Assembly: GCF_026210795.1 (NCBI RefSeq)
Contig: NC_089450.1
Span: forward strand, 2,542,001 to 2,606,000
Source of the DNA: Rhizophagus irregularis
Taxonomy: Eukaryota; Glomeromycota; Glomeromycetes; Glomerales; Glomeraceae
Length of the DNA stretch: 64,000 nt
Reading direction: 5' to 3'
Positions 7,816-62,009 of the stretch are shown here, one piece after another (the stretch's first letter is position 1; each line of letters begins with the position of its first letter). Below the pieces are notes generated by a model that saw only the letters and a program-made list of their open reading frames with translations, had not been told where the DNA came from and did not search any database. Both the position numbers and the translations under genes were made by a program.

Positions 7816-8358
7816 TCAGTTGTTAACGTTAAAGGAATGATTTAAGTAAGCATAGACCTGCTGAAGCTGGTGATTTTGAATATCTGAGTTAGTTGCTGGT
7901 ATAACAATAATGTTTGTCTGAGGAGAATTAATATGAAAAATATTGGACTGTGGTAAATTTTGATTAATATGTTGCGGGTAAAACTTTTGATAATTATGAC
8001 GAGAAATATTATTTGAATCATATTGTTGATAATGACTATTGTTAAAAATGCAGTTGGAAGTGGATTGCTGGTTATGGTTAAAAGAGTCATATTGTTGATG
8101 ATTATGATCAGGGGAAATAGTAATATTATTATTGCCATTAGACGTGGATTGCTGATGATTTTGATAAATGTCGCTCAAAGCGTCATATTGCTGATTGGAA
8201 ATGGGTTGCTGATCAGCATTATTAATGTTATTGCTGTATGTTGCTGGCACGTATGTATCATTCATTACTCTCTCTTGAGTAATAAATTTATTAGTAAGAA
8301 TTGATTCGCAGTCATCATTATTACTAAAATTATTTTGTGAATAATTATTATTACTCAT
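7816..8358 (-). CDS. Asn/Gln-rich prion-like protein, family member 1
   Basis: Single-exon frame of 180 residues, ATG at 8356-8358. Very rich in Asn, Gln and Ser, with HQQYDS and QQSTSN repeats in the middle (about residues 65-125). The C-terminal block, about residues 141-176, is hydrophobic and conserved in paralogs: QSNIF, INSPQTNIIVIPATNSDI, then LQQVYAYLNHS. No signal peptide, transmembrane segment or known domain. A TATATAA-like site is at 8433-8439 on the minus strand. The leader shares CATCAAT...CAACAATTTA with the member at 27386. Function unknown; composition suggests a prion-like or assembly-prone protein, which is inference. The same segment continues rightwards into degenerate exon-like DNA also found next to the 55-kb member. 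Confidence 0.7.
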   Translation of the reverse strand: MSNNNYSQNNFSNNDDCESILTNKFITQERVMNDTYVPATYSNNINNADQQPISNQQYDALSDIYQNHQQSTSNGNNNITISPDHNHQQYDSFNHNQQSTSNCIFNNSHYQQYDSNNISRHNYQKFYPQHINQNLPQSNIFHINSPQTNIIVIPATNSDIQNHQLQQVYAYLNHSFNVNN

Positions 8359-8432
8359 GTTTTATTTTTTCTTAAATTGTTGAAATGATAAATTGATGAA
8401 TATTTCTTTTTATGTTGAAAAACTTCAAGTTA

Positions 8433-8439
8433 TTATATA
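8433..8439 (-). promoter_or_regulatory. TATA-like box of Asn-rich gene 1
   Basis: TATATAA on the minus strand about 75 bases upstream of the ATG. The four family genes each have such a site 40-100 bases before the start. Confidence 0.4.
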
Positions 8440-9334
8440 AAAATTTTTGTCCGCAGCAGACCGTTCTGCCACATGTTTTTTGTTATTATCCAGAACAAAA
8501 AAAAACTTCTTTTTTTTTCGGAGAAAGAAATTTCCGCCGTTGTGCAATATATTTTTTTAAACAATTGTCATATTTTAATTGTTGTTATATTAATAAAATT
8601 TTGAAAAAACTTCTTTGTTAAGCTCATTATATTATTTTCTTTTATACTTACTGCGATGTCATTATATAATGCATAAAAACTTTATTTTAATACAAAATCA
8701 TATATTATCCACGCCAATTTAAAATAATTTTGAAACTTTTAATTTGATAATTAGTATTTAAAAACTCGCGTCCCATGAATTCATTAGGAATATTAAAACT
8801 TCTAGAATTATCGATCAATTAATTCTTAAATCAGGTATGTTCTAAAGTACTATAGGCAGCGTTGATTTGTAGAAGAGTGTGAAATATTTTATAACTGTAT
8901 ATGATTAATGTTTAAATTCCAAAGACCATCATTATTTTTTTTTTCTTTGTTTAGTTTGTTATTATTCCATTTATTATAAGAAATATATTTAGGTAAATTA
9001 TAAATACTAATAGAGAAATGAAAAGTGCAAATGGCGTAAATTATAGAATTTTCAATGAAAATTCAATAAAACTATAACTTGTGCAACATCGTACAACGTA
9101 TGTTCTAAGCGTGTAATATCACGTGAATTTATGGCCGGAATTACGGCATTAAGAATTTAACTATAAATAATTCTAAATTAGGATGACTGGAATTTTTATG
9201 CACAGCCGCAATTTTGTTTTATTAGCTTGTTTAATAGTTATTGAATTGCCCAATTCGAATCTGCTTAGACTTTAGACCATGATTTCTTTTTGGTACCTTT
9301 TATCGTTGTTTACAAAACCGTGCGACCCTAAAGC
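8440..9334. other. intergenic with one GGCC/TCACGTGA arm
   Basis: No gene seen. At 9119-9147 TCACGTGA is followed by TGGCCGGAATTA, an isolated arm of the family seen at 2161-2705. Confidence 0.4.
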
Positions 9335-9561
9335 TGATTATTGACGATTTCTGAAAGAATTCTTGCAGAAACCCCAATTAAGAATGTAACCAACGTTTTT
9401 CCTAAATCATTACTTCTGTGTAATTACACTTCGGAGCTAATTCCGCGAATTACTAATGAATTCATAAAAATTTCTAAATGCGGTAAAAGAATGATTTTAA
9501 GGGAAATACTTAAATAGTTGGGATTTCTGCAAGAATTCCTTCGGAAATCGTTAATAATTGG
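9335..9561. mobile_element. foldback (long inverted repeat) element
   Basis: Arm 9335-9378 is inverted at about 9518-9561. Both contain GAATTCTTGCAGAAA (or its complement TTTCTGCAAGAATTC) and ACGATTTC. Weaker pairing continues inward (CTAAATCATT against AATGATTTTA), so nearly the whole 227 bases can fold. No frame and no clear target duplication. Confidence 0.6.
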
Positions 9562-9984
9562 TTTTCTTCTGAATATTTTGAAAACTGGTTTTCTTTTGCG
9601 CTTTATAGTTGGTAACGATAGAAAAGTCTTTTTTTTTTAGTACAAAGAAACTATAAAATGAAATTGTTGTTAAAAGAACAAATTCTTCTCTTGCTTTTTA
9701 ACTTCATTTAGCTGAGATAAGGCTTCATATATCTAATGCGGAAGTAGGAACATGCAGCAACGTTTGGTTTAGGTACTTTTTCTTAGTTTTATAATACAAA
9801 GGACTTGCTAAAGTTATCATAATAAACGGTTATCTAATTTAAATTGTATGAAAGTTATCTCTTTATAATCGTGAAAACGTGCGTGGTACGACTGGTGCAC
9901 CTTAAAATATCCGTCCGTTGTATATATTATAAAATTTTTTCATTATTATTGTTTAATGAATAGTAAATCTAATACTTCTTAGTA
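9562..9984. other. intergenic, no gene seen
   Basis: AT-rich, nothing recognised. Confidence 0.35.
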
Positions 9985-10278
9985 TTGTGTTCTGTAGATG
10001 ATTTAGAATCAAATGTATATTTTTCGATGCAACTCGAAGTGTCTCAAGGATTAGAACTCAATATCATGGCTGAAAGTATTGATCAAAATATTAGAAATAA
10101 AATGAGCAAAAATATGTGTTTGGGTACTTACTATGATAATATTCAACTTTTAATAAAAATTACTAGTTTACATGCCAATGTCAAAATTTCATCACTTTTG
10201 AACTATCCCGTGATTTTAGTTCCAGAATTTACCAGCGGTAAATATTCGTTATTCGTTACACGCAGCCGCTTTTCCTGA
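9985..10278 (+). CDS. possible coding fragment (hypothetical)
   Basis: Open frame of 97 codons that begins at a TTG; the first ATG is at codon 15. The composition is protein-like (SMQLEVSQGLELNIMAES, then KITSLHANVKISSLLNYPVI). It overlaps an equally plausible minus-strand frame at 10203-10412, so at most one is real over the overlap. It may be an exon or remnant of a gene whose other parts lie in 10.5-11.5 kb. No family recognised. Confidence 0.2.
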   Translation: MCSVDDLESNVYFSMQLEVSQGLELNIMAESIDQNIRNKMSKNMCLGTYYDNIQLLIKITSLHANVKISSLLNYPVILVPEFTSGKYSLFVTRSRFS

Positions 10279-10412
10279 TTTGCCCATACTTCAAAAAAAG
10301 TATAAATAGTATAAATATTCCCATGTTCATCCAATTCCTTTACGTTAACTTTAATTTGTAAATCGGAAACACCGTTAATAAAATTCTCATATAATAACTC
10401 GATTTTCCGCAT
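10203..10412 (-). CDS. possible coding fragment (hypothetical)
   Basis: Frame of 69 codons from an ATG at 10412, with protein-like composition (VNVKELDEHGNIYTIYTFFE then NQEKRLRVTNNEYLPLVNSG). It is antisense to part of the frame at 9985-10278. It may be a first exon; a GT occurs in GCTGGTAAAT near its end. No family recognised. Confidence 0.25.
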   Translation of the reverse strand: MRKIELLYENFINGVSDLQIKVNVKELDEHGNIYTIYTFFEVWANQEKRLRVTNNEYLPLVNSGTKITG

Positions 10413-10519
10413 TTGTCTTTTATTAATTTAATTTGCTTGATCGTAAATTAAAAAAATAAGAAGTATTATTTAATCAAAGAAGCAACTTCTTAAGATTCCC
10501 ACCCAAAGTAAGTATTTGT

Positions 10520-13178: not shown

Positions 13179-13182
13179 AAAG

Positions 13183-13369: not shown

Positions 13370-13373
13370 AAAG

Positions 13374-17909: not shown

Positions 17910-18563
17910 ATGAGTAATAAAAAATCGACCAAATACGAAGTTCCGTTCTTTAAAGTACCATTTCCACCAGAAGTGACGGTGGAAGAGATCTTAGCAACTA
18001 GGTCAGATGATAAACTTAAGTCGAGAGCTCCCAATCGATACCTAATTTACAGGATCGCATTTCTTAAGGAGCTGAGGAAACGAACTAATGATAATGTGCC
18101 CATGACGAAGATATCAGGTCATATCAGCTCGTTGTGGCATAATGAATCAGCTGTAGTGAGGGATGCTTATAAAAATTTGTCTGACCAAGTAGAAGATCGC
18201 CTAAAGGAAATAAGGCAGAAGGAAAAGTTAGTGATGATCACTGAATTTCCAAACGAGTCTCAGGATCTACAAGATTCGCCATCTGAAATGGACATTCCAC
18301 TCTTTCCACTCTTTTCTAATCCACAGCCCCTGCAACCACTACATCCGCAACACCCGCAACACCCGTCTCCATTAAGTCCATTCGTTACCGAAAATCATTT
18401 ACTGGTTAATCAAGATTATACTCCAGTTTTTTATTTTGATCCTCTTCCTTATCAATTTTTTGATGACTATATACAAACTGACTTCGAAATGCCAATATAT
18501 CCTTATCCTATCGATTCATGTTTATGCGAAACATGCTGGAGTAATTTTAACAATCAGTTTTGA
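17910..18563 (+). CDS. MATA-HMG-box protein
   Basis: 217 residues from the ATG at 17910; the frame opens six bases earlier at a TTG. The HMG box spans about residues 39-101: APNRYLIYRIAFLKELRKR, then PMTKISGHISSLWHNES, then VVRDAYKNLSDQVEDRLKEI. These fit the three-helix MATA-HMG pattern with the N-terminal P-N-x-[FYI]-[IL]-Y-R motif and the central LW. HMG boxes of this class bind DNA; in Glomeromycotina they form a large expanded family whose roles, including any in mating, are mostly untested. The C-terminal half is disordered: a Pro/His/Gln-rich tract (about 130-160) and an aromatic, acidic tail ending in CLCETCW. A nuclear DNA-binding regulator is the likely role. No intron is needed. 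Confidence 0.85.
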   Translation: MSNKKSTKYEVPFFKVPFPPEVTVEEILATRSDDKLKSRAPNRYLIYRIAFLKELRKRTNDNVPMTKISGHISSLWHNESAVVRDAYKNLSDQVEDRLKEIRQKEKLVMITEFPNESQDLQDSPSEMDIPLFPLFSNPQPLQPLHPQHPQHPSPLSPFVTENHLLVNQDYTPVFYFDPLPYQFFDDYIQTDFEMPIYPYPIDSCLCETCWSNFNNQF

Positions 18564-27385: not shown

Positions 27386-27817
27386 ATGGATAACAATAAA
27401 AATATTCCTAGCATCTCGTCCCTCGTGAACTCGCTGGGCTTATCTCGCAATTCTAATGATATACCGCAAACTTCTGATATTCAAACGGGACATCTTTTGG
27501 CAGTTAATAACTCTTCTAACAACGTGACGAACAACCGTGATAATTATCCTACACCTACAAGTATTTCTCCGGAACCTGATCACCAGCAATATAATCCACC
27601 AAACGATAATCCTACTATTTCTCCTTCGCAATCCACGTTCAATGACATTTCTAACAACGATGATACTAACGCGCAATTCTACTCACAATATATCAAAAAT
27701 TCACCCAAGCCAAATGTCTTTCCTTTGCTTAATTCACTTAGGATTAATATTAATTCTCCTCAGACAAACATTATTATTTTGCCTGTCTCTAATTCAGATA
27801 TTAAAAATCAGCTTTAG
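27386..27817 (+). CDS. Asn-rich prion-like protein, family member 2, with in-frame TAG
   Basis: 143 residues from the ATG at 27386 to a TAG at 27815-27817. The frame continues for 14 more codons (QVYTYLNHSKNSPK) to a TAA at 27860-27862, and this extension matches the C-terminal end of member 1 (LQQVYAYLNHS). TAG thus stands where paralogs have Gln, one base away from CAG. The rest fits the family: N-terminal Ser/Asn-rich region, DHQQYNPP, ISPSQSTFNDISNN, and the C-terminal block NVFPLLNSL, ININSPQTNIIILPVSNSDI. It is either a truncated variant or, less likely, read through. No signal peptide. It lies about 0.5 kb upstream of the LINE insertion. Confidence 0.65.
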   Translation: MDNNKNIPSISSLVNSLGLSRNSNDIPQTSDIQTGHLLAVNNSSNNVTNNRDNYPTPTSISPEPDHQQYNPPNDNPTISPSQSTFNDISNNDDTNAQFYSQYIKNSPKPNVFPLLNSLRININSPQTNIIILPVSNSDIKNQL

Positions 27818-27862
27818 CAAGTTTATACTTATTTGAATCATTCAAAAAATTCGCCAAAATAA

Positions 27863-28402: not shown

Positions 28403-30032
28403 CAATGTTCGCTAAAATCAACTCGTCCCCTCATTCAGGTTATCACCTTAAAGCATCTTTACCAATGAATATTCATCGATTAGATGAACATCACGAAGAA
28501 AATATTGAAGTAAAATTAATTGGTTAACAACATGGTTTTCTGATACTCTCAACAATTTAGAAAACAATTTGAAGATAGCAGATGATTTCTACTCACTTGC
28601 GAATATTAAGATCAATAAAGAAAAAACAAAATTATTAACCAACGATGAGGACCTCTTGAAACAACCGAACCATAGATACAATTTACAATTTGGTAATGAT
28701 CTCGTAGAAATTGAAATTGTTCCAAAGAGAAAAGATGAACGTATTTTAGGCATCCACGTCAATATAGCTAATTCACCATCATTTACTTACAACAAGATCA
28801 AAAAAATGTTACATTATATTTGTTTCAAACTTTGTATGAAAAAAATCACGCATGATCACGTGATGTATATTATTAATAAGGTGCTATTACCGAGGATAGA
28901 ATATTTAACGCAACACATTTTTATTGAACCAAACAAATGTAATGAATTCAATAGAATTTTACGCTCAATTTTTAAACACTCCTTATCATTACCAAAATCT
29001 TTTTTTAATTCAGTGGTACATAATTCGATATACCCCAATATTTTGAATATTTGGGATTCACAATTGCGTTCCCAAGCATCTTTATTAAATGCACAAATTA
29101 ATAACCCAGTCACGTCAAAAGTTATAGAATTCCTTTTTTTAACATCACAATGTAAACTTTGGACAAATGATATAAGTGAAACGACTAAATATTTTCACAA
29201 ACCTTCTAAACATTTTAACCGCTTAGAAAATTTATTATGCATTTTCCATTTCTATAACTTATCCTTTCATACAAATTTTAAATATAATGTTACTGGTGGT
29301 TTACATCCTATTAGCTATTTTATCGTTGACCCCAAAAAATATTTTGGTTTTGTTAAATCACTCAAGAACAAGAATATTTTCTTCTTGGATCAAATAATTA
29401 GTAACGATGGTGCTTTTCTTAAAACTTGGAAAGAGATCAAGAAATTATTAAAAAATAATCGAGGGCGTCGACCTAAATGGTATGATTTTCTTAAAGATAA
29501 TATCGTATTAAATCCTTCAACAAATCGTTTACAATTCACGACTCAATCCGATAATATGTCACCTGATCTCAGATTTCCACGACCTAAAATAATTAAATGT
29601 AATAATCATAGTGTTCCTTGTAAAAATCAATGGGCAGCTTTCTGGTCGCCACGAGTTTCATGTATAGTTTATGGAAAAATTTTGGAAAAATCACATTTCC
29701 CTGGAGATTCACCAAAGGTTTATTTAGAACATCATATTCCCTTTACAGATATGTCTAATCCTAATCATAATATAACTCCTCACTCCACACCTAATTTACT
29801 TGTACCTTGCACTGGTTGTGATCTTCATGACTCATTCTATATAGGTGACGTTCGTCCCAAGTGCATTATTAGCTATTTTTCTAATTTTACAATCACTTTA
29901 CATGTGAATATATTCAAAAAAGATAATAATCGATTTAATAACATTTTTATTGTACATAAGTCTGACAGTGAATTACGTGCAGATACTTTTCCCCTCGTTT
30001 ATATATCCCTTCTAACATTAATCATAGATTAG
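28403..30032 (+). pseudogene. LINE reverse transcriptase C-terminal part, broken at the catalytic box
   Basis: Frame 1 (28402-28524) reads FAKINSSPHSGYHLKASLPM and ends EVKLIG just before a stop. The sequence resumes in another frame with TTWFSDTLNNLENNLKIADD, then FYSLANIKINKEKTKLLTN, the conserved region just after the YxDD motif of LINE reverse transcriptases (the N-x-x-K-T motif is visible). The frame offset equals the loss of 3n+1 bases, about ten, exactly where the catalytic Y-x-D-D codons should be. The long open frame 28569-30032 that follows encodes the thumb and linker, with a CTGCDLH...CII cluster near its end. It cannot encode an active polymerase. Confidence 0.85.
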
Positions 30033-31003
30033 TGAATGGTTTATTATTACCTAATGATATCTTTAATGAATTTTATATTTTAATTAATAATTTAGCTTCT
30101 TTCACAAATTTAGTAGAATTTTATACTGATGGTTCTTTAAAAATTGATGATGATAATCCCCGAATGGGTTTTGGGTGGATATTTACTTCGGATACTAGTT
30201 TAAATATAAAATTTTCTGGTGCAACTACGCAATGGCCCAGTTCTACTAGAGCTGAAATTATGGCAGTATTAACATGCCTTATAGTTTGTCCATCTAATAG
30301 TTCAATTAACATTTTTACAGATAGTCAATGTATGATCGATACTTTCACATCGTTATCGAATTATAAGTTAACACCAAAACGAAAGCAAAAGATTAATAAT
30401 ATCATTCTCTGGCAGGCAATCCAACAAATTATAGCTGAGTTGAATTTACAGGTACAATTCACGAAAGTAAAGGCACATTCAGGAGTCGAATATAACGATA
30501 TTGCCGATAGATTGGCCAAAAACGGATGTGATTCCAATAAGATGATTTCAATTTCACCAAAGGGCGTCAAAGCACAAAAAGGTTATATCATGTTTAACAA
30601 TGATACTATCATTGATCATAATATCAGGAAAATATTAAAGAAACCGCTTAATTTCCGTCACATAGAACGTCAAATTTCACTCAAACCTTTACATGTACTC
30701 AAATCATTCATCACCAATCATATCATCAACTGGGAGTTTTCACAATTATGGATTAATCATAACCCCTTTCAAAAAGCCATGAGTGAATCGTATAGTAAAC
30801 ACGTTGGTTGGCGTATCAAATGTTCAAATTATGCCTTACCTACGCTGGACGCTCTTAATCGAAATTACCCGGATATCCTTAATGGATACGACACATGTTT
30901 TTTATGTTCCTCTACTGCAGAATCTAATGAACATTTTTGGACTTGTCCAAAGTCGATAGATATTTTGAAATCCATATTTAGAATCCATGAACAGAAATTT
31001 TGA
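30005..31003 (+). pseudogene. LINE RNase H domain and zinc motif
   Basis: Counted from the GTG at 30032, residues about 28-165 form an RNase H fold with all acidic catalytic residues visible: D33 in FYTDGS, E75 in TRAEIM, D97 in FTDSQ and D159 in NDIADRLAKNG, plus H149 in KAHSG. It then has the LINE C-terminal LPTLDAL motif and C-x2-C-x8-H-x3-C in CFLCSSTAESNEHFWTC. Sequence upstream in the same frame (YIPSNINHRLVNG) shows that this part was continuous with the reverse transcriptase before a one-base shift near 30000-30010. It ends at TGA 31001-31003, after which the same frame continues. Confidence 0.85.
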
Positions 31004-31333
31004 TCACACATTATTAACAACATGGATAAAGAAAAGATCAATATTAATGCTATCAATTTTGATATCCCTATATTTACTTCTTTCAATTCCCCTATCAATT
31101 TGATTCATGATGCACCAGATTTACATTGCCTCCTGATTAATCTAGTCCCGAATTGTCTCTTATTACCGTTGAAAGATGCCAAAATTCATAAAAAGTTAAT
31201 CAAAAAATCACTTCTTTCATTTTTATTTGATCTACATCATGATATTTATGATCAACTATGGAAAGCTCGCAATATCAAATGGAAAGAACATAAGAAAATT
31301 AATGGTATAACGAAAAAATCCTTTCTAAAATGA
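31004..31333 (+). pseudogene. LINE extreme C-terminus beyond an in-frame TGA
   Basis: The frame after the TGA at 31001-31003 stays open for about 110 codons (MDKEKININAINFDIPIF, then KLIKKSLLSFLFDLHHDIYD, then LWKARNIKWKEHKK). In active relatives this tail is expected to belong to the same protein as RNase H. The W-x-x-R-x-x-x-W end is common in LINE C-termini. Confidence 0.7.
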
Positions 31334-33358: not shown

Positions 33359-33360
33359 TA

Positions 33361-37853: not shown

Positions 37854-38572
37854 TTATTCAGCGGTAAATCTTACACAATCATCTTGAGAACCTATGAAAA
37901 AAAAATTAAAAAATTTATAAATTTTTTATTAGTTTCGTCGCGATACATTTATTAATTTCATAAATTACAAAAAATTTTATAATTATAATTACCTCTTTGA
38001 GCAACAGGCATTAAAACAGGTTGATGAGCAAATGAAGAAACCATGGTGCAAAGACGATAGTCACCAGCTGGCAAGCCTTTTTCAACTAATGCGGTTAATT
38101 CACCATTGCCGTCTGCTGGATCATTTAAACCTTTGAAGAAAGCGAAGATTTCGGGATTAAGAGGTTCATCAGGATTATCAATTTTTTGAACTGTTACGTG
38201 GGAATGGCCTTGAATAAATCCATCATTATCAAGAGTTTGTGGGAAGATGTAATATTGTTTTACGGGATCATCGAAAAAGCCAGTTCTTAAGTTAATTGTT
38301 TTGGTTCTAATAGTGAATGCTGTGTTAGCCGGAATCTTATCATTATTCTTTGGGAAACGGATTACAGTTGAAACCATTTGTTTCTTGCTTGGAATTTCTC
38401 CCATAACTGTAGTTACACATTCACCATTAGGATTTTGAGTTCCATTAAATAGGTCTTTCTTGGATATGTCACAAACATTATTTCCAGTATTTGAATCTAC
38501 AGAGAATACTACTGCAAAGATATAAGCGGCCAAAATTGCCGAAATGATAAGTGATTTTCTTAAGAGACTCAT
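37854..38572 (-). CDS. secreted protein of the fungal family often mislabelled 'ribosomal protein s17'
   Basis: Two exons: 37993-38572 and 37854-37891, with an intron at 37892-37992 (GTAATT...TTCATAG). Total 618 nt, 205 residues. Without splicing the frame ends NYNYKIFCNL; splicing gives PVAQRGSQDDCVRFTAE, a better and family-like C-terminus. Residues 1-24 form a signal peptide (SLIISAILAAYIFAVVFS). The mature part has the family pattern: early Cys residues, IRFPKNNDKIPANTAFTIRT, NLRTGFFDDPVKQYYIFPQT, then FIQGHSHVTVQKI, AFFKGLND and LPAGDYRLCTMVSSFAHQPV. Similar secreted proteins are common in basidiomycetes and other fungi; function is unestablished and there is no relation to ribosomes. 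The family recall is from memory. Confidence 0.8.
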
Positions 38573-43862: not shown

Positions 43863-46566
43863 AATTAATGTAGTCGTAAAAAGTCTTATACTAGGTAAGG
43901 AATAAGGATACGGTATATCTTTTTCTTTCTAACTTCATAGCTCGAAACTAACGCGTCCATTCTAAATTATTATCGTTTAGGAATAAAATTGATTTCATGT
44001 AGGATTCTAATAGAGGGCGGCCAGGGCGCGTATAAAGATATATTTACAACATACTATTTTAAATGTTTAATCTTTAATTTGACCAATCTCCAATTTGATG
44101 ATAATTAAAGTTGTTATTATACTGTGAATTAGTGAATTAGTGCTTTTTTTTATAGTTTCAGCAAATTATCCATGAGTTACGGTCGAAAGATCGCATTGTT
44201 TTGAAAACGTGACAAAATTTCAAATTATTATTACTTACTGTAATAAGTTTTATTGAAAATATAATTTTTATCATATTATTAGACATTATATTATTATTAA
44301 GGTTATCACGCAGAATAAAGAGTTAAAGACTCCATACTATTTATGACAGTTATGACAGACACTATATTGTTAGAAGATGAATCATTCGGAAACAAACTTG
44401 CAGCATATTAGTGATACTTACAGTATAGTATCTCAACTATCCATTTATATTTTATAAAAAAATAGGACGATTATTAAAAGATACTTACCAAAGTAAATGA
44501 ATTTTAAATTTTTCTTTTTTTTTTAAAAAAAATACTTTATATTGTTCAAAAAAGAATAGATTGCAAGAAGTGTATAATTAATGTTATAAATCGGGAATAC
44601 ATTCAAGTTAATAATTCAGAATTTTTAACGTTAAGATTTAAAATTTATAAAATATTAGCAACATCCCGTTGCTTCGCACAGAATTCAACGAACTCATACC
44701 GTATAGTAAGCACGAATAATATCCTGAAATTATTCCTGAAGATAAGCTGTAGCGAGAAGACCGCTCAATTTGTAGGTGAGTATTATATTAACTTTTTAAT
44801 TTATTTAAATAATATATTAAATTTATAATTTTTGTGATAAATTATGATATCATCAACAAAATTCATGATACGAATCTTAAATGACATAATTCTACCGTCA
44901 CGTTATACACGTTACGTAATCACGAAGAAACAGATCAGCTAGATCAGCTGCTGGTATACTAATAATTCATTCATACAGGGTACATAATCTAAATATGATC
45001 AAATTACAATAAATAAATTTCAAAAATTTTCGGGACGAATTAATTTAAACTAAACAAACAAACTTTGAAATCCAATAAGATTCAGATCTTCATTTTAATA
45101 ACTTTCTAAAAAACAAATAGATATTCATTATTACATTATACAATAATTAATATGGACATATTATAAACATTTTAATGTTGTATAATTGCTTTTTTATCTC
45201 ATCGAAATGACGAAATGTGTAATGACGCAATGTCTAACCACACAAACAAATCTGTGCGACAGTAATTTTCTCATTTGTAAATAGCCTAAATAGCCTATAA
45301 AAAATTTTCACGCCACGGAGTCGGTAATCTACGCCAGATAATCTTAATTCCTAGATTGGCTAACTTACCGAAAAGGCGTTCAAGAGTTTTTCAATTTGAA
45401 TTTTTTTTTATAAATACCTCAATGATTTTACTTTCCAAAATTTTCTTTACGGTAGCTAACTGAGTTAACTGCCAAAATATTTGGATTACACTGCGCCACA
45501 ATTTGACAAAAACCAAGTATACTATATAGAACTAGTAAAAACATCAATTAAGATTATTGTATTTATGTGCAGAGATTGCCAATTAGTTTAAATCAAGATT
45601 ATATCGCATTGAGAAGTGGGTTAATTGGAGAATATATTTTTTTTAATGATTAAAAGAATTAGGTGTTGAATTAATTGGAGTTTGAAAAATAAAAAATTTT
45701 TAAAGTTATTATGACCACGTTACAAGAATTCCTAAACGAAAATTATTTATAATTATTTATTTATGTAACTAATTCTACATAACAATTGTTTTAATGATCA
45801 ATAAAATTTCATTGATAAAATTTTGGCTCTAAAAATTTTACGAAAACTATAACGTGTTGTGGGTCCAATTTTATTTAAGTCCATAATTCGAAGCAGCAAT
45901 CTACTAACACTTTTAATATGCATTCAGAATTTTTCCATTCAACTTAACTAGGAATTTACGATTTAAGTATGGAACAAAATTAGCCAATTTAGCCAACGGT
46001 ACGTATGCAGCAGATCTAAAAGATATTATGACTCAAGTGAACGCGAAGTCCTGCTTCGTACCAAAAAACAGATTTTCGCAGAATTATGAAAAAGTAATTT
46101 ATATATTTTACGACTTCACTGAAAGATATCGATTCGCTCTAAAATAATATCGATATTTAAATCAGTAAATCATCGCAATAGTCTCGAGTAATCTAGAAGG
46201 CGATTACCGTGATCGTGTCATTTGATAACTACGCCCATCAATAAAATTTTCGTATGTGAATCCGAATTTATTCAAACTCGAAGGTTTAGTGTTGAGAATT
46301 TCAAGTGAGAAAAATTATTTCATGTCCTAAAACAAAATGAGATTTATATAATGCAGAGCATCATGAAAGTGTTGTTTTCATTTCGTTGTTCTAATATCAA
46401 TCTACTTAATTATTAATTTTAATTTTTTCAAAATTTTGTTATAACCTTTAAGGATGAAAAATGTAATAAATATTATCAACATTTAATATGTAAATATATA
46501 GAGAATAATTAGTATGTTTGTTATTACTTAGCAATTTATTTATTTATTTATTTATATTTAACTTCA

Positions 46567-46753
46567 TTTCAATAAGAAAGTATTACCATAACGACGTTGA
46601 CTCTTCAATTCAATAAGAAAGTATTATACCATAACGACGTTGACTCTTCAATTCAATAAGAAAGTATTATACCATAACGACATTGACTCTTCAATTCAAT
46701 AAGAAAGTATTTATACCATAACGACATTGACTCTTCAATTCAATAAGAAAGTA
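46567..46753 (+). repeat. tandem repeat (41-44 bp) abutting the ankyrin gene stop
   Basis: CAATAAGAAAG starts units at 46570, 46611, 46654, 46697 and 46741. Each complete unit continues TATTATACCATAACGACRTT then GACTCTTCAATT. The last unit runs into the 3' end of the ankyrin gene, whose terminal bases ATTACCATGATGGCTTTGAC resemble ATTACCATAACGACGTTGAC of the units. Confidence 0.85.
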
Positions 46754-46763
46754 AGTTTCTATA

Positions 46764-49700
46764 TTACCATGATGGCTTTGACCAATATTTGAATATTGAA
46801 GCAAAACTTCCAGGATAAGTATCCTTTTCTTTCGATCCAATTTTTCTACCTAATCCATATGAGATTTTTTCGGTTAATTTATATGTCATATCATTAACCT
46901 TATTAAATTCAGCAAGTACTCTTTTCGATGATGGATTTCCTCCATTTCTAGGTAAATAAAATGGTACCATGAGGTTAAAAGCTTTAATCGACTTTTTCAT
47001 AACTGGATCCTTTTTTTTTGAAAACAGTGATTCAAATAAAATAGATGATAGTTCATTCAAAAACATTTGTATGGCTATATCTGTCGGGGTTTGTCCAAAT
47101 GAATTTTCGTGAAATAAGGAACCAAACTTCTCATCATCTTCAACTGTAATCGTAGATTCTAATTCAATCAATTTTTTTGAAATATACCAAAGACCTTCTC
47201 TAAGAGATAAATGAAGATATCGATTGTTCTCAAAATCATGAGTGAATAAATTCGCAGTAGAGACATGTTGTAAAAGATATTCAGTTAGTTTGATGTTGGA
47301 ATTTAGAATCGAGATTGATATTGGTGTATGGTTGAATGATTTACTACGTTTTTTCAACATTCCCTGATAAATTTCTGGTTGCAACAACTCATGCAATAAA
47401 CTCATTAATTCATCATTGTTTTTATTTCTATAATAAAAAAGTTAATACTTTTAAATAATTAACTAAAAAAAATAAAATAAATATAAAGTTATGAATATTT
47501 ATACGTACGCAGCATAATGAGCTAGAGACCAACCATTATTATCCGCTATTTCGGGATTTGCTCCAACTTCTAATAATGTTCTAACGCAGTTATTGTGACC
47601 AAAGTAAGCAGCCAAAAGTAAAGCAGTGACTTTATTGCGATCGGTTCTCATATCTAGGATTTCTTCAATTGTTAATTGTTGTTCCTTATTGTCTCCTGCT
47701 TGTTCATTAATTTCTTTCTCTTTATATAATTTAACTAGTTCCTCAATTGCATAGTGTTTATTTCCATCTACAGCCCAATGAAATGGTGTTTCATTATTTC
47801 TAAATAATTCGTAAGTAAATAATTTTCTTCCAACATTTTGAATATCTTCAATTGTATTCAAAATCGTTACTCTTAAATCTTTGGAGTTGTTATTAATGTA
47901 TTTTTGTGCAAACTTTTTCAATGCCTTTATTGGCCTCTCAGAGAAAAAGTATCGCATACTTGTTATATTTCCATAATACGCAGCGTAAAATATGTAAGAG
48001 GGTTTTACAGATTTATTAGAAAAATCAGAATTATGATGAATTATCCAAGATCTTTTCATAGAACCATTCACATCTAAACCTTGATAGTATCTTAATGAAA
48101 AATAAAAATAAATTAAATTATCATTCTATTTATGTATAAGATTACAAAATAAAAATTTACTTTGGTATCTTGATCAAAGGAGTGTCTTCTTCAGGATCTT
48201 TAATGTCAAAGATAAAAAAATCATTTCCCCCTGCAGCATATCTATAAAATAAAGGAAAATAAAATATCGTTCTATACTTTTTTAAATTTATAAAATTTAA
48301 TTAGACTTACTCAATAAGCAAATCCATCATATCCACATATCCAAGATAAATAGAATCCATCATCGGATTTCTTTTATCCATGCTGTTCTCTCCTTGAATT
48401 AAATATGTAACTAATCCTCCAGCCTTTTCAAGATTGTTGTCTAAATAATTTCAATCGAAATAAATGATTTGTTTAAATATTGTCTTTAAAAATTTAACAA
48501 TCTCAACAATCTCACCTTCAACATATTGATATTTTTCAGCCCAATCCAAAATTTTTTTTACCATTTCTAAATCATTTTTTAAAACAGCTACTTCAAATCC
48601 ACTTGAGTAATATTTATTTTCACTTATGTTGTGTTCTTCCAAGAATTTTTTAGGGACAATTTTTATATTCATAAAACATTTCTTATATTGAAGAAATTGA
48701 AATACTGAATAATTAGCTGTGGGCTTAATATTAGAGAGTTTGAATTTATCGTTTTCATCTTCAAATACATTCATTGAGGCTGATTGTGAAGATTCTTGGT
48801 ATGTGTAATTCAAACCATCATCTATTTATCAATTTAAAGATAAGATATTATTTTTCCTTTATTTTAAAAGAAAGATTCATTTTACAATATAAATTACCTA
48901 CCAATAATATCGTAATTGTTAATAGCATTAATAGCATTAATACTTTCATTCACTTCATCCTCTTCTAAATCAATCTTTTTCTTAGGTACATATTGACTAG
49001 AAACAATATCTAAAATTTTAACTGCCAATTCATTATGACCACGTAGACAAGCCAACATAAATGGTGTCATGTTAAATTTATCATGAACGGCAAAAACTAA
49101 AATTTGTGCCATTTTTTCAACTTTGCTAATGTCATTAACATAAATAGCTTGAAATAATTCCATATATTCTTGAACTAGTTTTTCTGGTACAACTTTTTCA
49201 CAATATACATTATCATCATCAAGATAAGTGAATTTCATTATAAGTTTATCAAAATTTATTGGCTCAGAAAAAATGTTTTCAGGTAATGGTAATTCTAGAG
49301 TTGATTCTTCATTATATGGTTCTGGTTGTATAGATTCTTGATATGTTTTATAAATTTCATCAATTTCTTCCTGCTGCTTGTTTATAGCTTGTTGTAAAAG
49401 AATTTCTTCCTTAAGGTAACGTTCTTTTTCTTCAGATCCTAACACTTCAGCCTTTTCTTCCATTAATATCTTGATAGCATTTAACTGTTCTTGATATCCT
49501 TTCATTAATTTTTTTGGTATTTTTAAATTATTTTTCAAGTCAACTTCTTTTGAATTTTTAGCGCCATGATTAATAAAATGTTCTAAACATTCCTCGTTAT
49601 AGTTTAATTTACTAATTTCTAGTTCAATTAATTTTGTGTATTTTTCTTTGAGTTCATTTATATCTTTGCTATTACAAGGCTTTTGAGATGAATGTGGAGG

Positions 49701-52700
49701 ACATATTGTTGGATACATCTTATGATAGAAATCATAAAAATCTTTAATAGTATGCTGACTAAGTGCATATTCTCTATAAGATCCTTTTACATCCTCTTTT
49801 TCTTTTTTAATTAATTCCTTTAAATACTGCATAATTTTTGTTACTTTTATTTCTTTTGGAGTTTGCTTCTTTCCTTCATTTAAATGTTTTAAATTTTCTT
49901 TATAACTTTTAATATTGGCTTTATTATCATCTATTAATTTTTCAATTTTATCTCTAGCGTAGTTTTTATGATAAGTAGCATTGACATCTGCTCCAGCCTC
50001 AATTAAAGTACGATATAAATTATTTTGCAATGCATCAAATATGGGCTGCTTTATGCCCTCAAATAATTTATTTGCTGTAGAATACTTATTTTTAGGTAAT
50101 TTACGATTATAATATTCTTGAACGTCCTTTAATGTAATATTTGTCTATTTAAAGATGATTGAATTAAAAAAAATTTTTCAATTAAATGAACAAAAAAAAA
50201 AGTAATGAATAATTGATTAGTTACTTACTCTTGCACCGTACTTAATTAATAATTCGATGATTTCTAAATGATTATTATCAATAGCTAGACATAGTGGGGA
50301 TTTAAGAGAACTATTCAATGAATTAATTATTTTTGATGATATTGGATCCATATCAAGTAACAATTTAACAAATTGTATTTTTCCAGTTTGAACAGCAAAA
50401 TGTAAAATGTTATTAAATGAGTAACCGATCTAATAAAAAAATATTAAATAAATTTAAATTTTTTTTTTAAAAAAAAAAATAAGAAATAAACAAAAATCAA
50501 TTTTTAAAAAAAAATTTAAAATTTACTTGAGAAGCTGAAGCACCATTTTCCAGTAAAATTGAAGCAATTGCTAACCCAGATTCCTGATCTTGAATTAATA
50601 AACATAAATTTAATGGATAGCAAGGTTCATATCTTAAAAATTTGCAATTCTTATCCTGTAATTTAATTAATCTTCGAACGTTTGCTCCGGCTTTAACCAA
50701 TTGTCTTACTATTTCTACATTTCCAAATAATATGGCATAGTCTAAAGGAGCTAGCGGATGATCCCAAGATTCGGCATTTATATCTACTATGTCGTCATCT
50801 TGTTCATTCTCATTTTCTGGGTCTAAAATTGGATCGCCCTTGGATACCATTGATGATTCTTGCGTTTCATCAACCATTTCCAATGAATCATCAATTATCA
50901 TTACATTATCATTAGTTTCCTGTTGTTCTTCAATTTGCATTTGATTATTTTCCAATTCTCTATTTTCTTTTTCTTGCGCTTCTTTCTTATTTTCATCACT
51001 TTTTTGTAATAATAATCTTAAAATATCTAAAAATCCATACTGTGAAGCCAAATGAACGACAGTTCTACCATCTGGCATTCTTGCAATGATTCTAGCACCA
51101 TGTTGTAATAAAATTTTAACTATCTCAGTATGACCTCCCAAAACAGCCAACTGTAATGGAGTCCTTCCAAGATAATCTCTTGCTTCGACATCAATCTTGA
51201 TCTGGGAGTCCTCATTAACATTTGGTAAGGAATTCTGCTTTAAGAGATTCTCAACGACATCCACGTCGCCTCTTGCACAAGCATTACACAGATCTTCTCT
51301 AACATTAGTAATATAAGCTTGTGCTGCCCAATCATCATCGGTTAATGGATGAAAGCTTCCAATAGTTTGCCTTCCTGGATCATCCTTTATAAATTCCATT
51401 TTACCTCTTACAAATGTTTTATCTTCTTCAATTTGAGTAGCAACTTCTTCTGAAGTACTAGGAACGGGACAATAACCACAACCATCATTAAAAATTTGTT
51501 CCATCGTTCCAAAGAAGCATGGATGTCTATGTAGAACTCTCTCTTTGTTTTTTTCATACCACTTTGAATTCAATACCATATCCTAAAATTAATGGAAAAA
51601 AAGAATATTTGTTAAATTCAAAGATAAAAAAAAAGATAAAATAAATTTATACCGTACATACCTTTGTATAAAGTAATTTCATAATTCTTTTCGCGTCATA
51701 TTTAGGACCATATGGTAAAGTTACCGTTTCATAATCATTATTTTCAAATTTATTTAATTTCATATTGCTACGTCTTCTCGGTCTCCTTGATACATATTTA
51801 CCAGAATTTGGATGTTTTGGACGACAATTGCGTTCACGTTTTTTTTCTATATATTCAAATCTTTCATAAGGCGTGTTTAGACGTTCTAGTACAAGTAAAC
51901 GAGCGAGACCATTAAGTTTTTCAAAACTTTTTTCATATATTGTAGGGTCAATTCTGGAGCGATCTAATGATGGAACTTTGATCTATTTTTTGTAAATATA
52001 ATAATTAAGTATTTATTGTAAATATATTTTAATATATAATTGCCCGGAGCGAAGCGAAGGACTATATATGCCTACGCATTATGAAAAATTATCGATCACG
52101 TGAGTTTATCTGTCCTCACGTGACGTCATCGAAATCGCAAATCTGAGTTTTATCGCTCCGGACTTACAACGGTTTCCGGTTCCTAGTAACATAAATATTT
52201 AATTACAGACCTCAAAACCTCTTTCTGCATATTTTACCAATCTCATCTCATATGATGGAGACCTTCTAGTCAAGTCAACAGTGTTACATTGTTTAATGAT
52301 TGCTTGATGAGCTCTTGGTAAAGCCCAGACATTTTTACCATCGAACCTGTATAACAAAAATCCTGGATTTGTTAGAAAATAGGGTTATTATTTTATTAAG
52401 AAATGTATCTGAATAAACATTACCCAACGCAACAACAATCAACATCAAAGCCAGTAAGAATTTCTGAAGGAGAGTTATATAATCGAAGTATAATCTAATT
52501 AATTAAAGAAAAAGTTTTTTATATCTAAATAAGTAAATTTTCACAATTATTACAAGATATTATTTTAGATCATTTTGATAACATACTTGAATGTGACGAT
52601 AAGGATATTGACTTAAAATTGTCACACAATGTTTACTTCGAAAACATGCAACTGCCCAAGGAATAGAATTACAAACAGCTTCGTAAATCTCTATCATCTT

Positions 52701-55184: not shown

Positions 55185-55739
55185 TTATTGGGATCGAGTT
55201 TGTGGGTTGTTTATTGAGGACCAATTATCCAGAATTTGCCGAAGAATATCTGAATTAGTATTATTAGAAATTGTGCCAATATTATATTTTACCTCATGAC
55301 AATTAAAATTGCCATAATTAATGCAAGGAAAGACATTATTAGACCGAGGCAAATCTTTGTTAACATATTGTGGAGGTGAAGTGTTATTGGACGTGGGCGT
55401 GAATTGAAAACCAAAAGGAGCATTATCTGAAGAGTTAAATGGTTGATTATTAGGAATACTATCACTATTGTTAGGAATGCCATTGGACGTGGGTTGTGAA
55501 GGGGAAATTGTAGTGTTATTTTGCTGGAAATTTGAGCCATGAATGCTTGGATGTGCGGAAAAATTATTATCATCAATCACGGATAAGTTATTATTACTGT
55601 CGTAAGAAGAACTATAGTTATTATTATTTGTTGAAGAATGTCCCTGGATATCACTGGGTTGTGATATATTATCGGTATAATTAAATTCATTATTGTTGCC
55701 ACTAAGATTACTATTTTGTAAAGGGTTGGTATTATTCAT
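55185..55739 (-). CDS. Asn/Ser-rich prion-like protein, family member 3
   Basis: Single-exon frame of 184 residues, ATG at 55737-55739. Asn, Ser, Gln and Pro dominate. It is closest to the 61.5-kb member: SNLSGNNNEFNYTDNISQ, DDNNFSAHPSIHGSNFQQ, then NNTTISPSQPTSNGIPNNSD. The C-terminal hydrophobic block of members 1, 2 and 4 is changed here (SNNVFPCINYGNFN, then TNSDILRQILDNWSSINN), keeping only the NSDI...LRQIL ending. No signal peptide or known domain. It lies in the segment 55.2-57.9 kb that is duplicated at 61.5-64 kb. Function unknown. Confidence 0.7.
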   Translation of the reverse strand: MNNTNPLQNSNLSGNNNEFNYTDNISQPSDIQGHSSTNNNNYSSSYDSNNNLSVIDDNNFSAHPSIHGSNFQQNNTTISPSQPTSNGIPNNSDSIPNNQPFNSSDNAPFGFQFTPTSNNTSPPQYVNKDLPRSNNVFPCINYGNFNCHEVKYNIGTISNNTNSDILRQILDNWSSINNPQTRSQ

Positions 55740-55747
55740 AACTTAAT

Positions 55748-59120: not shown

Positions 59121-59267
59121 ATTTGTGTCAGATGCAGCTGACGTGCGTCACCTGAATCGTCATAGTAACTTTAAAATTTATTTCGAAAATTTAATGTTCA
59201 ATTATAACATAATTATAGCAATTTTATATCACAAGTGACGCACGTCAACTGCGTCTGACGCACAAAT
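59121..59267. mobile_element. MITE-like hairpin with about 34-36 bp arms
   Basis: Arm 59121-59154 (ATTTGTGTCAGATGCAGCTG then ACGTGCGTCACCTG) is inverted at 59232-59267 (CAAGTGACGCACGTCAACTG then CGTCTGACGCACAAAT). They differ at only a few positions across a 77-bp AT-rich loop. An extra partial arm TGTGCGTCAGATGACG sits just outside at 59104-59119, suggesting nesting or slippage. Confidence 0.7.
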
Positions 59268-60803
59268 TTATATCGCCGAAATCTACTCCGCTTTGTAGAA
59301 CCCGCATAACTGAAAACTAATTTTTTAACCAAATGTTCGAATGACTTGGTTTATTTGTTACCCGAGTATTTACTGTAAATAAACAATTCCAACACTTCGG
59401 AACATTGAATCGATACAAGTATTAAATCAAATGAATAAAAAACATAAACTAAAATTGCATCTATAAAAAAAATAGATAAATAAATTTCAGCAAGATGTCT
59501 TCTCGGCAAGGCGGTATTTTGGAAAGTATTCCTTCGGTAAAATGAATTTCGGTAAAATGGTATTTCGATCAAGTGACTTTTTGTTAATACAACATTTCAA
59601 TTCTATATAATGGACTTAGATAACTTAATTTTGATCGTTGGTACGCAATTACAAATTATTTTTTCTTTGATTCTTGATGATCAGTTGTTAATAACACTAA
59701 AATTAATGTGCTACCAATTGCTATGGTCAAGTCGTTCAAAGAATTTCCTTCAAACTTCCTCTGTTCGCTAATGATACACGATGATAGTGTTGCTTCATTG
59801 AAAGACTTTATATTTGTTTTAAATCTGCTTATTTTTTTATATTATTATTAAGAAATGAAGTTATTATAGTTAAAATCTTTTTTTACTTTAAGCTTATTTT
59901 ATAATTTTCATCGACTCAACATATAAATAATAAATAATATATATATTGTGTAACACAATATTTAGGAAGCATTGCATAGGTTTATATTAGTACAGCATTT
60001 CGTAACATTGAATTTTTAAGGCTTAAATAACAAATAAACATTGAATCAATTTTAAATTTGTATATCGGAAAAATAAATTAATGATATGAAAGTTTACCTT
60101 TTATAGCATATAATTATTTTCGCCACGAGATCAGCGAATGTGATTATTGGTAAACCGCGATTTAATTGGTTGACTCGCAAAAAAGGTCAAAATATTGTGA
60201 ATATTGCTGCCTCATTTTCACACTTCAACTTATTTACGATAAATGATTTAATTTAGAAATTTCATACAACAATGATTTCCTGATTTTTTGGTGGCTACGC
60301 TTTCTTGCCAAAAAAAATATATTTCATTGATGCACATCAAGGGCGTTGTCTTACAATCTGCATATTTATCGGATTTATTATTCCATACAATAATTTATTT
60401 ATGCGATTCATTTGATAACTGAAGAAATTTCCGGCAAATGATCTTCACTTTTTAAGTTCAATTATTTTAAAGACGATTTTTATGATAAAATATTTCGTAA
60501 ATTTTTTACAAACAATAATATAATTATCTTAATAATTAAGATTATTTAAAAAAAGAATTTGGTGTATTAAATTTTGAGTTCATTGTTATGTAAAAATTTC
60601 TCTGTTTTTTTTGTGTATTGCTAATAGCCGAACAAATTGGAGCGGTAGTACAATTTTCTTTTTTTATCTTATGGCGATAGTGTGGTGTCACTGTGGCATT
60701 ATGATGCCATTATGACTGTAATCAATCTTATGAGCTTTAAGCCGAGCCTATAATTACCATAATTATCATTCATTATAAGACTTATTTTGGTCATATTAGA
60801 TTT
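59268..60803. other. intergenic, no gene seen
   Basis: A short run of TTTCGGTAAAATG-type repeats lies at about 59530-59570. No gene. Confidence 0.35.
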
Positions 60804-60806
60804 ACT

Positions 60807-61012
60807 CCCTGTAAAAAATTTTTATCCTAATATTTTCATTATTTCTCTGTGTCTTCCGTAAAAATTCCGTGAAAATGATACATTATTACATTCATAGATA
60901 TCCGTATTAGCGAGATGAAAATTTCCATGATTTAAGGCTATAAATTCCATGAAAATGATACATTCACGGAAAAAAATATGGAAAGATAAAACACGATCAA
61001 ATTTTTACAGGG
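60807..61012. mobile_element. CCCTGTAAAAA-type MITE, copy C (complete)
   Basis: Starts CCCTGTAAAAAATTTTTATC and ends ATTTTTACAGGG, inverted over about 12 bases and more loosely beyond. ACT flanks both sides (60804-60806 and 61013-61015). The interior matches copies A and B (GATTTAAGGCTATAAATTCC, GAAAATGATACATTCACGGA). Confidence 0.75.
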
Positions 61013-61015
61013 ACT

Positions 61016-61499
61016 AATTACGTTTTCACTTAAAGCCCTTCGCTTGAAAACCAATCACATATACGAATATCTCTTTTCGCATTAAAAATTTAATAAAATA
61101 AATTATATTATATTATATTGTAGTAAGTGAAGTTCCCTTGTTATTTAAAAATATCAATGTTTTAAGAAAATAATAGGACCCAACGCAATATATTATTTCT
61201 GGTTACCTATTTCAGTATTGCTCGGGGCCCTAAAATAATTGTAAGTAAATTAGTGCTACATGTGCGAGTCTTATGCGTCTTTGTTAAAAAAAAAGGAAAA
61301 AATATTTTTTAATAATTTATTCTTTATTTATATAGAAAACGTTATGATAAGTTACATAGATTACAGATGAATAAAGACGTAGATAAAGATATAAAATAAA
61401 TAAACAAAAAGTATCTAAAAATTCAATAATATCATCTGGAGGTCTTTATTTGTTGAAATTGAGCTCCAAAAATTACTGAATAGATAATTTATTGTTGGA
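61016..61499. other. 3' flank of Asn-rich gene 4, no gene seen
   Basis: AT-rich; no supported frame. Confidence 0.35.
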
Positions 61500-62009
61500 T
61501 CAAGTTCGTGAATTATTTGTTGATGAAGAATGATTCAAAATTTGTTGAAGACGATCTTGAATATTTGAATTATCTACTGGCATAATAATAATAAGATTTG
61601 CCTGAAAAGAATTAATATTAATGCCAAGTGAATTAAACAAAGGTAAAACATTAGACTGAGGATTTGATGTGGACGAGGGTTGTTGATAATTATGATGTGG
61701 AGTATTGCTCGAAGTGGCGTATTGTTGATGAGGAATATTACCGCTATTGTTAAAAATAGGATTGGATGTGGATTGCGAGGGAGGAATAGTAGTGTTGTTG
61801 TTGTTTGAAGCATTATAGGGCTGATAATTAGAATCAGGAATACGTGCGGAAAAATTATTATCGTTGTTGTTCATCGCGGTATTATTATTGTAAGTAGCAT
61901 CATTGTAGTCAATATTTGTTGAAGCAGTTTGTGGTAAATTAGCGGGATAATTATTAAATCCAATATTATTATCACCAAGATTATTTTGTGAAGGATTAAT
62001 ATTATTCAT
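61500..62009 (-). CDS. Asn-rich prion-like protein, family member 4
   Basis: Single-exon frame of 169 residues, ATG at 62007-62009. Order of blocks: N-terminal NINPSQNNLGDNNIGFNNY; NDNNFSARIPDSNYQPYN; NNTTIPPSQSTSNPIFNNSG; HQQYATSSNTPHHNYQQ; then the conserved C-terminal block SNVLPLFNSLGININSFQAN, LIIIMPVDNSNI, LQQILNHSSSTNNS. No signal peptide or transmembrane segment. TATAAAA on the minus strand at 62057-62063 is about 50 bases upstream. This copy joins the N-terminal type of member 3 with the C-terminal type of members 1 and 2, so it links the family. Function unknown. Confidence 0.7.
   Translation of the reverse strand: MNNINPSQNNLGDNNIGFNNYPANLPQTASTNIDYNDATYNNNTAMNNNDNNFSARIPDSNYQPYNASNNNNTTIPPSQSTSNPIFNNSGNIPHQQYATSSNTPHHNYQQPSSTSNPQSNVLPLFNSLGININSFQANLIIIMPVDNSNIQDRLQQILNHSSSTNNSRT

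What the first reader, a model, noticed from the sequence alone, without database searches (positions are those of the whole stretch)
7816..62009. Four-member family of short prion-like Asn/Gln-rich proteins with a shared C-terminal block
Genes at 7816-8358, 27386-27817, 55185-55739 and 61500-62009 encode 143-184-residue single-exon proteins rich in Asn, Gln and Ser. They share a mid-protein TISPSQSTSN-type motif. Three share a hydrophobic C-terminal block (INSPQTNIIIxP, NSDI, LQQ, LNHS) in otherwise low-complexity sequence. Conservation of a beta-prone block next to fast-changing N/Q tracts suggests selection on an assembly or interaction module. Four copies in 64 kb suggests an expanded family. 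What they do is unknown; a role in protein assembly, signalling or self-recognition is inference only.
Basis: partly seen in the sequence, partly recalled or inferred. Interest (0 to 1): 0.8.

Follow-up and report, generated by a model that had tools for sequence, protein, structure and literature searches.

The report
One-chromosome family of asparagine-rich proteins
In what is most likely an arbuscular mycorrhizal fungus, these four small asparagine/glutamine-rich genes belong to a family of at least 34 copies, 32 of them within about one megabase of one chromosome; the genes look real and constrained, but what the proteins do is unproven.

Summary
The four ORFs exist as described; 5 of 6 pairs beat all 500 residue shuffles, A–C does not. 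Corrections: copy B is cut by an in-frame TAG, so its LQQ/LNHS tail is not coded; copy C lacks the core, and 55274–55399 resembles a dispersed repeat. They are four of at least 34 places in a 32-contig, 146.7-Mb assembly resembling Rhizophagus irregularis: 32 on C22 (2.21–3.24 Mb), one intact on C11, one broken on C17. Coding constraint is visible: pooled dN/dS 0.26–0.45 against 0.59–1.09 in neutral simulations, in-frame indels, asparagine codons 20% but lysine codons 0.7%. A 17-bp TATA element has nine exact matches in the genome, all upstream of members in the cluster; two led to a member not found before, but 19 of 27 members lack it. Among close paralogs the block is not clearly more constrained than the N/Q part. 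Best reading: a locally expanded family of cytosolic prion-like proteins that assemble through their end motifs; assembly is inferred only. No secretion signal, known domain or block-bearing NLR was found, with limited searches.

The parts
7816..8358 (-). Copy A, unbroken member, 180 aa; family N-terminus and C-terminal block
7834..7944 (-). C-terminal block of A (NIFHINSPQTNIIVIPATNSDIQNHQLQQVYAYLNHS); lacks the FPLLNSLG lead
27386..27817 (+). Copy B, 143 aa, truncated by an in-frame TAG inside the block
27713..27814 (+). Retained part of the block of B
27818..27862 (+). Remains of B's frame beyond its stop (block tail), ending at TAA
27294..27310 (+). Core-promoter element of B at -92, 3 mismatches to TATAAAAACCTCTGAAA
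55185..55739 (-). Copy C, 184 aa, open but without the core block
55274..55399 (-). Stretch in C resembling a dispersed repeat (C6 at two places, C1), where the core block should be
61500..62009 (-). Copy D, unbroken member, 169 aa
61527..61652 (-). C-terminal block of D (NVLPLFNSLGININSFQANLIIIMPVDNSNIQDRLQQILNHS)
   Evidence: helix 147-163 in a low-confidence model
62047..62063 (-). TATA element of D at -54, 4 mismatches to the family element (weak: 33 of 2000 random 200-bp windows do as well)

Best explanation
A single-exon gene family amplified mainly by local duplication on one chromosome of what is most likely an arbuscular mycorrhizal fungus. Architecture: a short conserved N-terminus (MNxNxSxxNNFxNNVYESN type), a middle of degenerate in-frame repeats rich in N, Q, S, P and H and almost free of K and E, and a C-terminal block: a hydrophobic core (FPLLNSLGIxINSPQTxIIIMP type) that in about half of the members is followed by a helix-like segment (NSDIQNQLQQVLAYLN type). 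Most likely mechanism: the proteins stay in the cytosol, the end motifs make homotypic or paralog-to-paralog contacts, and the disordered N/Q-rich middle gives reversible condensation or fibre formation tuned by repeat number, so that co-expressed paralogs form mixed assemblies. Shown: family, cluster, coding constraint, composition, a promoter element shared by several subfamilies, in-frame repeat variation. Inferred: localisation, expression, contacts, assembly, function.
For: Family and cluster; block-only search: 24 of 24 matches are members, 23 on C22 and 1 on C11. Control family, the HMG-box gene of the window: 85 matches on 22 contigs, 3 of them on C22. Coding constraint: CDS indels 38 of 42 multiples of 3 against 19 of 81 in flanks; pooled dN/dS 0.26-0.45 against neutral simulations 0.59-1.09. 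Composition: AAY 20.2% and AAR 0.68% of 5596 codons; eight control ORFs of the window 7.9% and 8.2%. N-termini not hydrophobic; no basic run of 3 or more in 27 proteins. Promoter: 9 exact matches in the genome, all in the cluster, 7 upstream of known members, 2 leading to a new unbroken member. Helix 147-163 in the model of D, pLDDT about 64 in residues 151-160; hydrophobic moment at or above 95% of shuffles in 7 of 14 members tested, several of them close paralogs.
Against: No expression or protein data. The model is low-confidence (mean pLDDT 42.8) and has no strands. PAPA-type scores (recalled weights, no disorder filter) pass 0.05 in 20 of 27 members, but 36-96% of shuffles do as well, B and C fail, and 4 of 8 ordinary control ORFs pass too. 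The block is not clearly more constrained than the N/Q part and single pairs reach dN/dS near or above 1. The indel test compared open frames, which favours in-frame indels. 19 of 27 members lack the promoter element. Group II members lack the helix-like segment, and two members end just after the core. Nothing computed here demonstrates assembly.
Confidence: 0.4

Rival explanations
1. Amyloid signalling as in HET-S/NWD2: the block is a templating motif shared by a receptor (NLR) and an effector, and the family is part of an allorecognition or cell-death relay.
For: Short C-terminal hydrophobic block after a disordered stretch; birth and death with repeat variation, as in fungal recognition genes.
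Against: The 24 block matches are all family members, though that search also missed at least four members that carry the core (2208, 2849, 2895, 2917 kb), so a receptor with a divergent block could be missed. No amyloid-motif model among Pfam matches; no RHIM tetrad (recalled pattern) in 27 members; no effector domain in members; no NLR domain in 12 non-family window frames scanned, out of 38 of 85 aa or more.
Confidence: 0.07
2. Nuclear, transcription-associated low-complexity proteins (activator or coactivator type) whose short hydrophobic motif binds a partner.
For: N/Q/S/P-rich sequence with an embedded hydrophobic motif fits activation domains (general knowledge); SP7-like effectors of AM fungi localise to nuclear condensates (PMC11333574, search listing with start of abstract).
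Against: No DNA-binding domain found; no basic run for a classical NLS, though proteins of this size may enter the nucleus without one.
Confidence: 0.2
3. Secreted or cell-surface disordered proteins, an N-rich counterpart of the AGL proteins of AM fungi.
For: AM fungi have small families of disordered glycine- and asparagine-rich proteins (PMC8786786, abstract).
Against: In 23 of 27 proteins the best 15-residue hydropathy mean of the first 40 residues is below 0.3 (maximum 0.77), and the most hydrophobic window, usually in the block, has a mean of at most 1.35; no signal-peptide or GPI predictor was available. Unconventional secretion remains possible.
Confidence: 0.1
4. Decaying or selfish low-complexity DNA: ORFs of a local repeat without cellular function.
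For: High copy number; 7 of 34 places are fragments or broken and 7 more are altered; copy C is partly repeat-like.
Against: dN/dS below neutral simulation, in-frame indels, near-absence of lysine codons against the A+T bias, a promoter element confined to members; 32 of 34 places on one contig.
Confidence: 0.08

Closest known systems
Yeast-type Q/N-rich prion and prion-like proteins (Rnq1, Sup35, Ure2; recalled)
   Same: N/Q-rich, almost free of K and E, disordered, degenerate repeats
   Different: Here nearly the whole protein is low complexity, with a shared C-terminal block, in at least 34 places on essentially one chromosome; assembly not shown
Fungal NLR-associated amyloid signalling motifs (HET-s, sigma, PP/RHIM-like)
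   Same: Short C-terminal hydrophobic motif after a disordered stretch
   Different: No receptor or effector partner with the block found, no Pfam motif match, no RHIM tetrad
AGL / IDP families of Glomeromycotina (PMC8786786: outline, abstract, passages)
   Same: Small, disordered, repeat-bearing, co-located genes of AM fungi
   Different: AGLs have ER and GPI signals and are P/G-rich; here the N-termini are not hydrophobic and the composition is N/Q/S
HMG-box family of the same genome (MATA-HMG; name recalled)
   Same: Expanded gene family, one member in the window
   Different: On 22 contigs, with an HMG box

Membership tests
Q/N-rich prion-like proteins | N/Q-rich stretch poor in charged residues | tested here: met
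   AAY 20.2%, CAR 11.2%, AAR 0.68% of 5596 codons; D 273 and E 44 codons, so D is not depleted to the same degree
Q/N-rich prion-like proteins | Prion-propensity score above cut-off and dependent on residue order | tested here: inconclusive
   20 of 27 above 0.05 (recalled weights and cut-off), but shuffles do as well and 4 of 8 controls also pass
Q/N-rich prion-like proteins | Self-propagating aggregates | not testable with these tools
   needs experiment
Fungal amyloid signalling motif families | Match to a described motif model | tested here: not met
   no such Pfam model among the matches; RHIM pattern (recalled) 0 of 27
Fungal amyloid signalling motif families | Same motif in an NLR-type receptor | tested here: inconclusive
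   24 of 24 block matches are family members, but at least four members with the core were missed by that search
AGL cell-surface proteins | ER signal and GPI-anchor signal | tested here: not met
   hydropathy only; no dedicated predictor
Transposon-encoded ORF family | Copies dispersed over the genome | tested here: not met
   32 of 34 places on C22; control HMG family on 22 contigs
Duplicated gene family under purifying selection | dN/dS below neutral expectation | tested here: met
   (pooled, 10 pairs)
Duplicated gene family under purifying selection | In-frame indels | tested here: met
   with the caveat that open frames were chosen
Lineage-specific family | Absence in other fungi | not testable with these tools
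   no fungal collection at hand; no relative in viral contigs or, with one member as query, in prokaryote contigs

The most novel reading that the evidence does not exclude
The C22 cluster is a dedicated repertoire of co-expressed prion-like proteins whose repeat numbers and end blocks give each strain its own set of compatible assemblies: an intracellular self/non-self or conformational-memory system, without an NLR receptor, in a coenocytic fungus whose hyphae fuse.
Probability: 0.07. Interest if true: 0.9.

Novelty: new variant of a known kind. Interest (0 to 1): 0.5.

Why it matters
Genes without known homologs are hard to study in AM fungi. This is a compact, testable case: at least 34 places on essentially one chromosome, a promoter element confined to the family in several subfamilies, and a protein design (end motifs plus a variable N/Q-rich repeat) that predicts assembly. 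If assembly is real, it would be a large natural family of stand-alone prion-like proteins outside yeast, in a coenocytic obligate symbiont. The promoter element also gives a handle on when the genes are switched on.

Tried and rejected
Pfam gave only weak, below-cut-off matches in two large members. Solved structures, one member as query, gave only Plasmodium erythrocyte membrane protein chains at E 0.11-0.65, taken as composition. Viral contigs: 34 pattern matches, none confirmed. Prokaryote contigs with one member as query: 36 pattern matches, none confirmed. An early hint that synonymous divergence is lower in the block did not hold in 10 pairs (p=0.28 and 0.44), so no gene-conversion claim is made. 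Similarity and distance along C22 correlate only weakly over 26 members (Spearman -0.09; 145 of 2000 permutations as low), although many closest pairs lie within 100 kb. An unbiased 8-mer scan upstream was uninformative; the TATA element came from reading the upstream sequences and was then tested. Open alternative frames over the genes were taken as a by-product of codon composition, untested. A possible further fragment at C22:2978835-2978987 (E 0.001) was not counted.
Full report
WHAT WAS CLAIMED AND WHAT IS THERE. The four ORFs are at the stated coordinates (A 7816-8358 minus, B 27386-27817 plus, C 55185-55739 minus, D 61500-62009 minus), with 20-25% N. With composition-preserving residue shuffles, none of 500 reaches the real BLASTP score for A-B, A-D, B-C, B-D and C-D; for A-C 14 of 500 do, so C is tied in through B and D. 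B's frame is cut by an in-frame TAG and goes on for 14 codons with ...LNHSKNSPK, so its LQQ/LNHS end is no longer coded. C lacks the core; 55274-55399 there resembles a dispersed repeat on C6 (two places) and C1 (64-81 bp at 81-85%). Whether the gene took up the repeat or the repeat carries a piece of a family gene was not settled.

WHERE THE WINDOW LIES. The window is C22:2542001-2606000 of an assembly of 146,748,485 bases in 32 contigs. A published R. irregularis DAOM197198 assembly has 32 chromosomal scaffolds and 146,773,001 bp (PMC10234402, passages).

THE FAMILY. Ten genome searches with family proteins and one promoter search give 34 places: 32 on C22 between 2.208 and 3.237 Mb, one unbroken copy at C11:443.9-444.5 kb and one broken copy at C17:1066 kb. 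Dropped: weak matches on C9, C31, C27, C18 and at C11:734.9 kb (E 0.18 to 2.2), the repeat-derived matches of C on C1 and C6, and C22:2978835-2978987 (E 0.001). The tool scores only its best candidates, so 34 is a lower bound. If places fell at random, 31 of 33 on C22 (the count before the last member was found) would have a probability near 2e-47; that sum ignores that copies arise from each other. As a control for the tool, the HMG-box gene of the window has 85 matches on 22 contigs and 3 on C22.

By my count, 20 of 34 have an unbroken frame with both the family N-terminus and the core block. Seven are open but altered: B (stop), C (core replaced), 2859 kb (different start), 2969 kb (divergent end), 2991 kb (ends within the block), 3206 and 3226 kb (end just after the core). 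Seven are fragments or broken: 2343 and 2794 kb (frameshift), 3182 kb and C17 (stops), 2378, 3115 and 3231 kb (fragments).

ANATOMY. The N-terminus is similar in most members (MNxNxSxxNNFxNNVYESN type). The middle holds degenerate units such as NNVTISPDxNHQQY; in the 440-aa and 403-aa members they are tandem repeats at DNA level (periods 135-198 bp, and 39-192 bp). The block has a hydrophobic core, FPLLNSLGIxINSPQTxIIIMP type, and in 14 of 27 members (by pattern, B's cut short and C's without the core included) a following NSDI segment; in 7 of these 14 its helical hydrophobic moment is at or above 95% of shuffles, several of them being close paralogs. AlphaFold2 on D with the other three window copies gives mean pLDDT 42.8, helices at 122-127 and 147-163 and no strands. 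A beta structure of the core is not shown.

ARE THEY REAL GENES? Four lines say yes. (1) In 10 pairs (the 3044-kb member occurs twice) pooled dN/dS is 0.43 (N/Q part) and 0.45 (block), or 0.36 and 0.26 on reliably aligned columns, a filter that itself lowers dN. Neutral simulations with transition bias 1-6 give 0.59-0.94 and 0.69-1.09. Synonymous differences are 136 transitions to 27 transversions, so the lower end of the simulated range is the fairer yardstick. Single pairs vary and some block values reach 1 or more. Block and N/Q part do not clearly differ (non-synonymous p=0.23, or 0.036 on reliable columns). (2) In nine pairs 38 of 42 CDS indels are multiples of three, against 19 of 81 in flanks alignable at over 60% (p=4e-13); the four exceptions compensate within two pairs. 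The pairs were picked among open frames, which favours this result. (3) AAY codons are 20.2% and AAR codons 0.68% of 5596 codons; in eight other ORFs of the window, two of them from a retrotransposon remnant, they are 7.9% and 8.2%, so N-richness is not an effect of A+T bias. Adjacent N codons are the same about as often as codon use predicts (184 of 323, expected 59%), which argues against simple triplet slippage. (4) 14 of 16 representative members have TATA[AT]A[AT] within 160 bp upstream, against a mean of 4.4 and a maximum of 8 in 200 shuffles and 34% of random 160-bp windows.

A SHARED PROMOTER ELEMENT AND A TEST. Several subfamilies share TATAAAAACCTCTGAAA at -81 to -144. Of 27 members 4 have it exactly, one with 1 mismatch, one with 2, B with 3, D with 4; the other 19 have 6 or more. 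Of 2000 random 200-bp windows none has fewer than 3 mismatches, 6 have 3 and 27 have 4, so D's is weak. In the genome there are nine exact matches, about 0.2 expected from base composition, all on C22 in the cluster. At one mismatch the pattern is not special: the reversed pattern gives 44 sites with up to one mismatch against 12 for the pattern itself, so the weight rests on the nine exact matches and their places. Seven lie upstream of known members. The other two, at C22:2849.49-2849.54 kb on the minus strand, had no known member; fetching the stretch showed an unbroken 255-aa member at 2848633-2849400. It is closest to the 2895- and 2208-kb members (51-52% identity), and no member of that subfamily had been a query, so a protein query from it might have found it too. 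Between subfamilies III and IV the only DNA match at E up to 1e-15 is a 73-74-bp stretch just before the ATG (2208, 2895 and 2917 kb against 3179 kb), so that stretch is better conserved there than the coding part.

WHAT IT IS NOT, AS FAR AS TESTED. No Pfam family beyond weak, below-cut-off matches in two large members; no meaningful solved-structure match with one member as query. N-termini are not hydrophobic, which speaks against AGL-type surface proteins (PMC8786786: outline, abstract and passages). The block-only search found 24 matches, all in members, but missed at least four members that carry the core, so it does not exclude a divergent block elsewhere. No RHIM tetrad and no basic run in 27 members. 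No NLR domain in 12 non-family window frames out of 38 of 85 aa or more. The receptor-effector layout of fungal amyloid signalling (PMC10197012 and PMC9815663: passages) was thus not found. Viral contigs and, with one member as query, prokaryote contigs hold no confirmed relative.

HOW IT MOST LIKELY WORKS. Inference: cytosolic, lysine-poor disordered proteins, co-expressed at least within the subfamilies sharing the element, that assemble through the two end motifs, with repeat number setting length and valency. Composition fits; residue order adds nothing (PAPA-type score with recalled weights: 20 of 27 above 0.05, but 36-96% of shuffles do as well and 4 of 8 control ORFs pass). Depletion of K and R is a general trend of fungal low-complexity regions (PMC11878562: passages), so it is not specific evidence for prions. 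I give 0.4 to the assembly reading and about 0.95 to a real, constrained gene family.

NOVELTY. Nine full-text searches (capped lists) showed no title or abstract start that describes this family. Of the 14 papers naming both R. irregularis and prion I read passages of two. DAOM197198 is reported to have regions of young genes with low poly(A) RNA and abundant small RNA (PMC10234402, section 21); whether C22:2.2-3.24 Mb is one of them could not be seen. Fungal relatives could not be searched, so lineage-specificity is untested.

Noticed in passing
window 17910-18563: HMG-box gene (Pfam HMG_box E 0.0011, below the curated cut-off) of a large family: 85 matches on 22 contigs.
   Followed up: partly
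window 28509-31333: Probable non-LTR retrotransposon remnant with an RNase H domain (Pfam E 9e-17) downstream of copy B.
   Followed up: no
window 46764-51582, minus: Cluster of ankyrin-repeat exons (Pfam Ank E down to 2e-23).
   Followed up: no
window 37958-38572, minus: 204-aa protein with a hydrophobic signal-like N-terminus and no Pfam match at E<=0.01: possible secreted protein.
   Followed up: no
window 7488-7731: Minisatellite (periods 22, 33, 44, 77 bp; type GTATAAAATCTAAATGAAAGTT) just downstream of copy A.
   Followed up: no
window 46562-46753: 43-bp tandem repeat, 4.5 copies, 96% matches, next to the ankyrin cluster.
   Followed up: no
L038, L039, L041 (C22:2895, 2917 and 2991 kb): Members of 350, 440 and 403 aa; tandem arrays checked in L039 and L041.
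   Followed up: partly
G000:C6:4295382, C6:4017488, C1:6914294 (L027, L030, L029): Dispersed repeat carrying the stretch seen in copy C; direction of transfer not settled.
   Followed up: partly
group II and V members (for example L024, L042): Conserved Cys motif in the N-terminal part (INCNDPSCNCN / INCDHSCSCN) not seen in the other subfamilies' first 60 residues.
   Followed up: no
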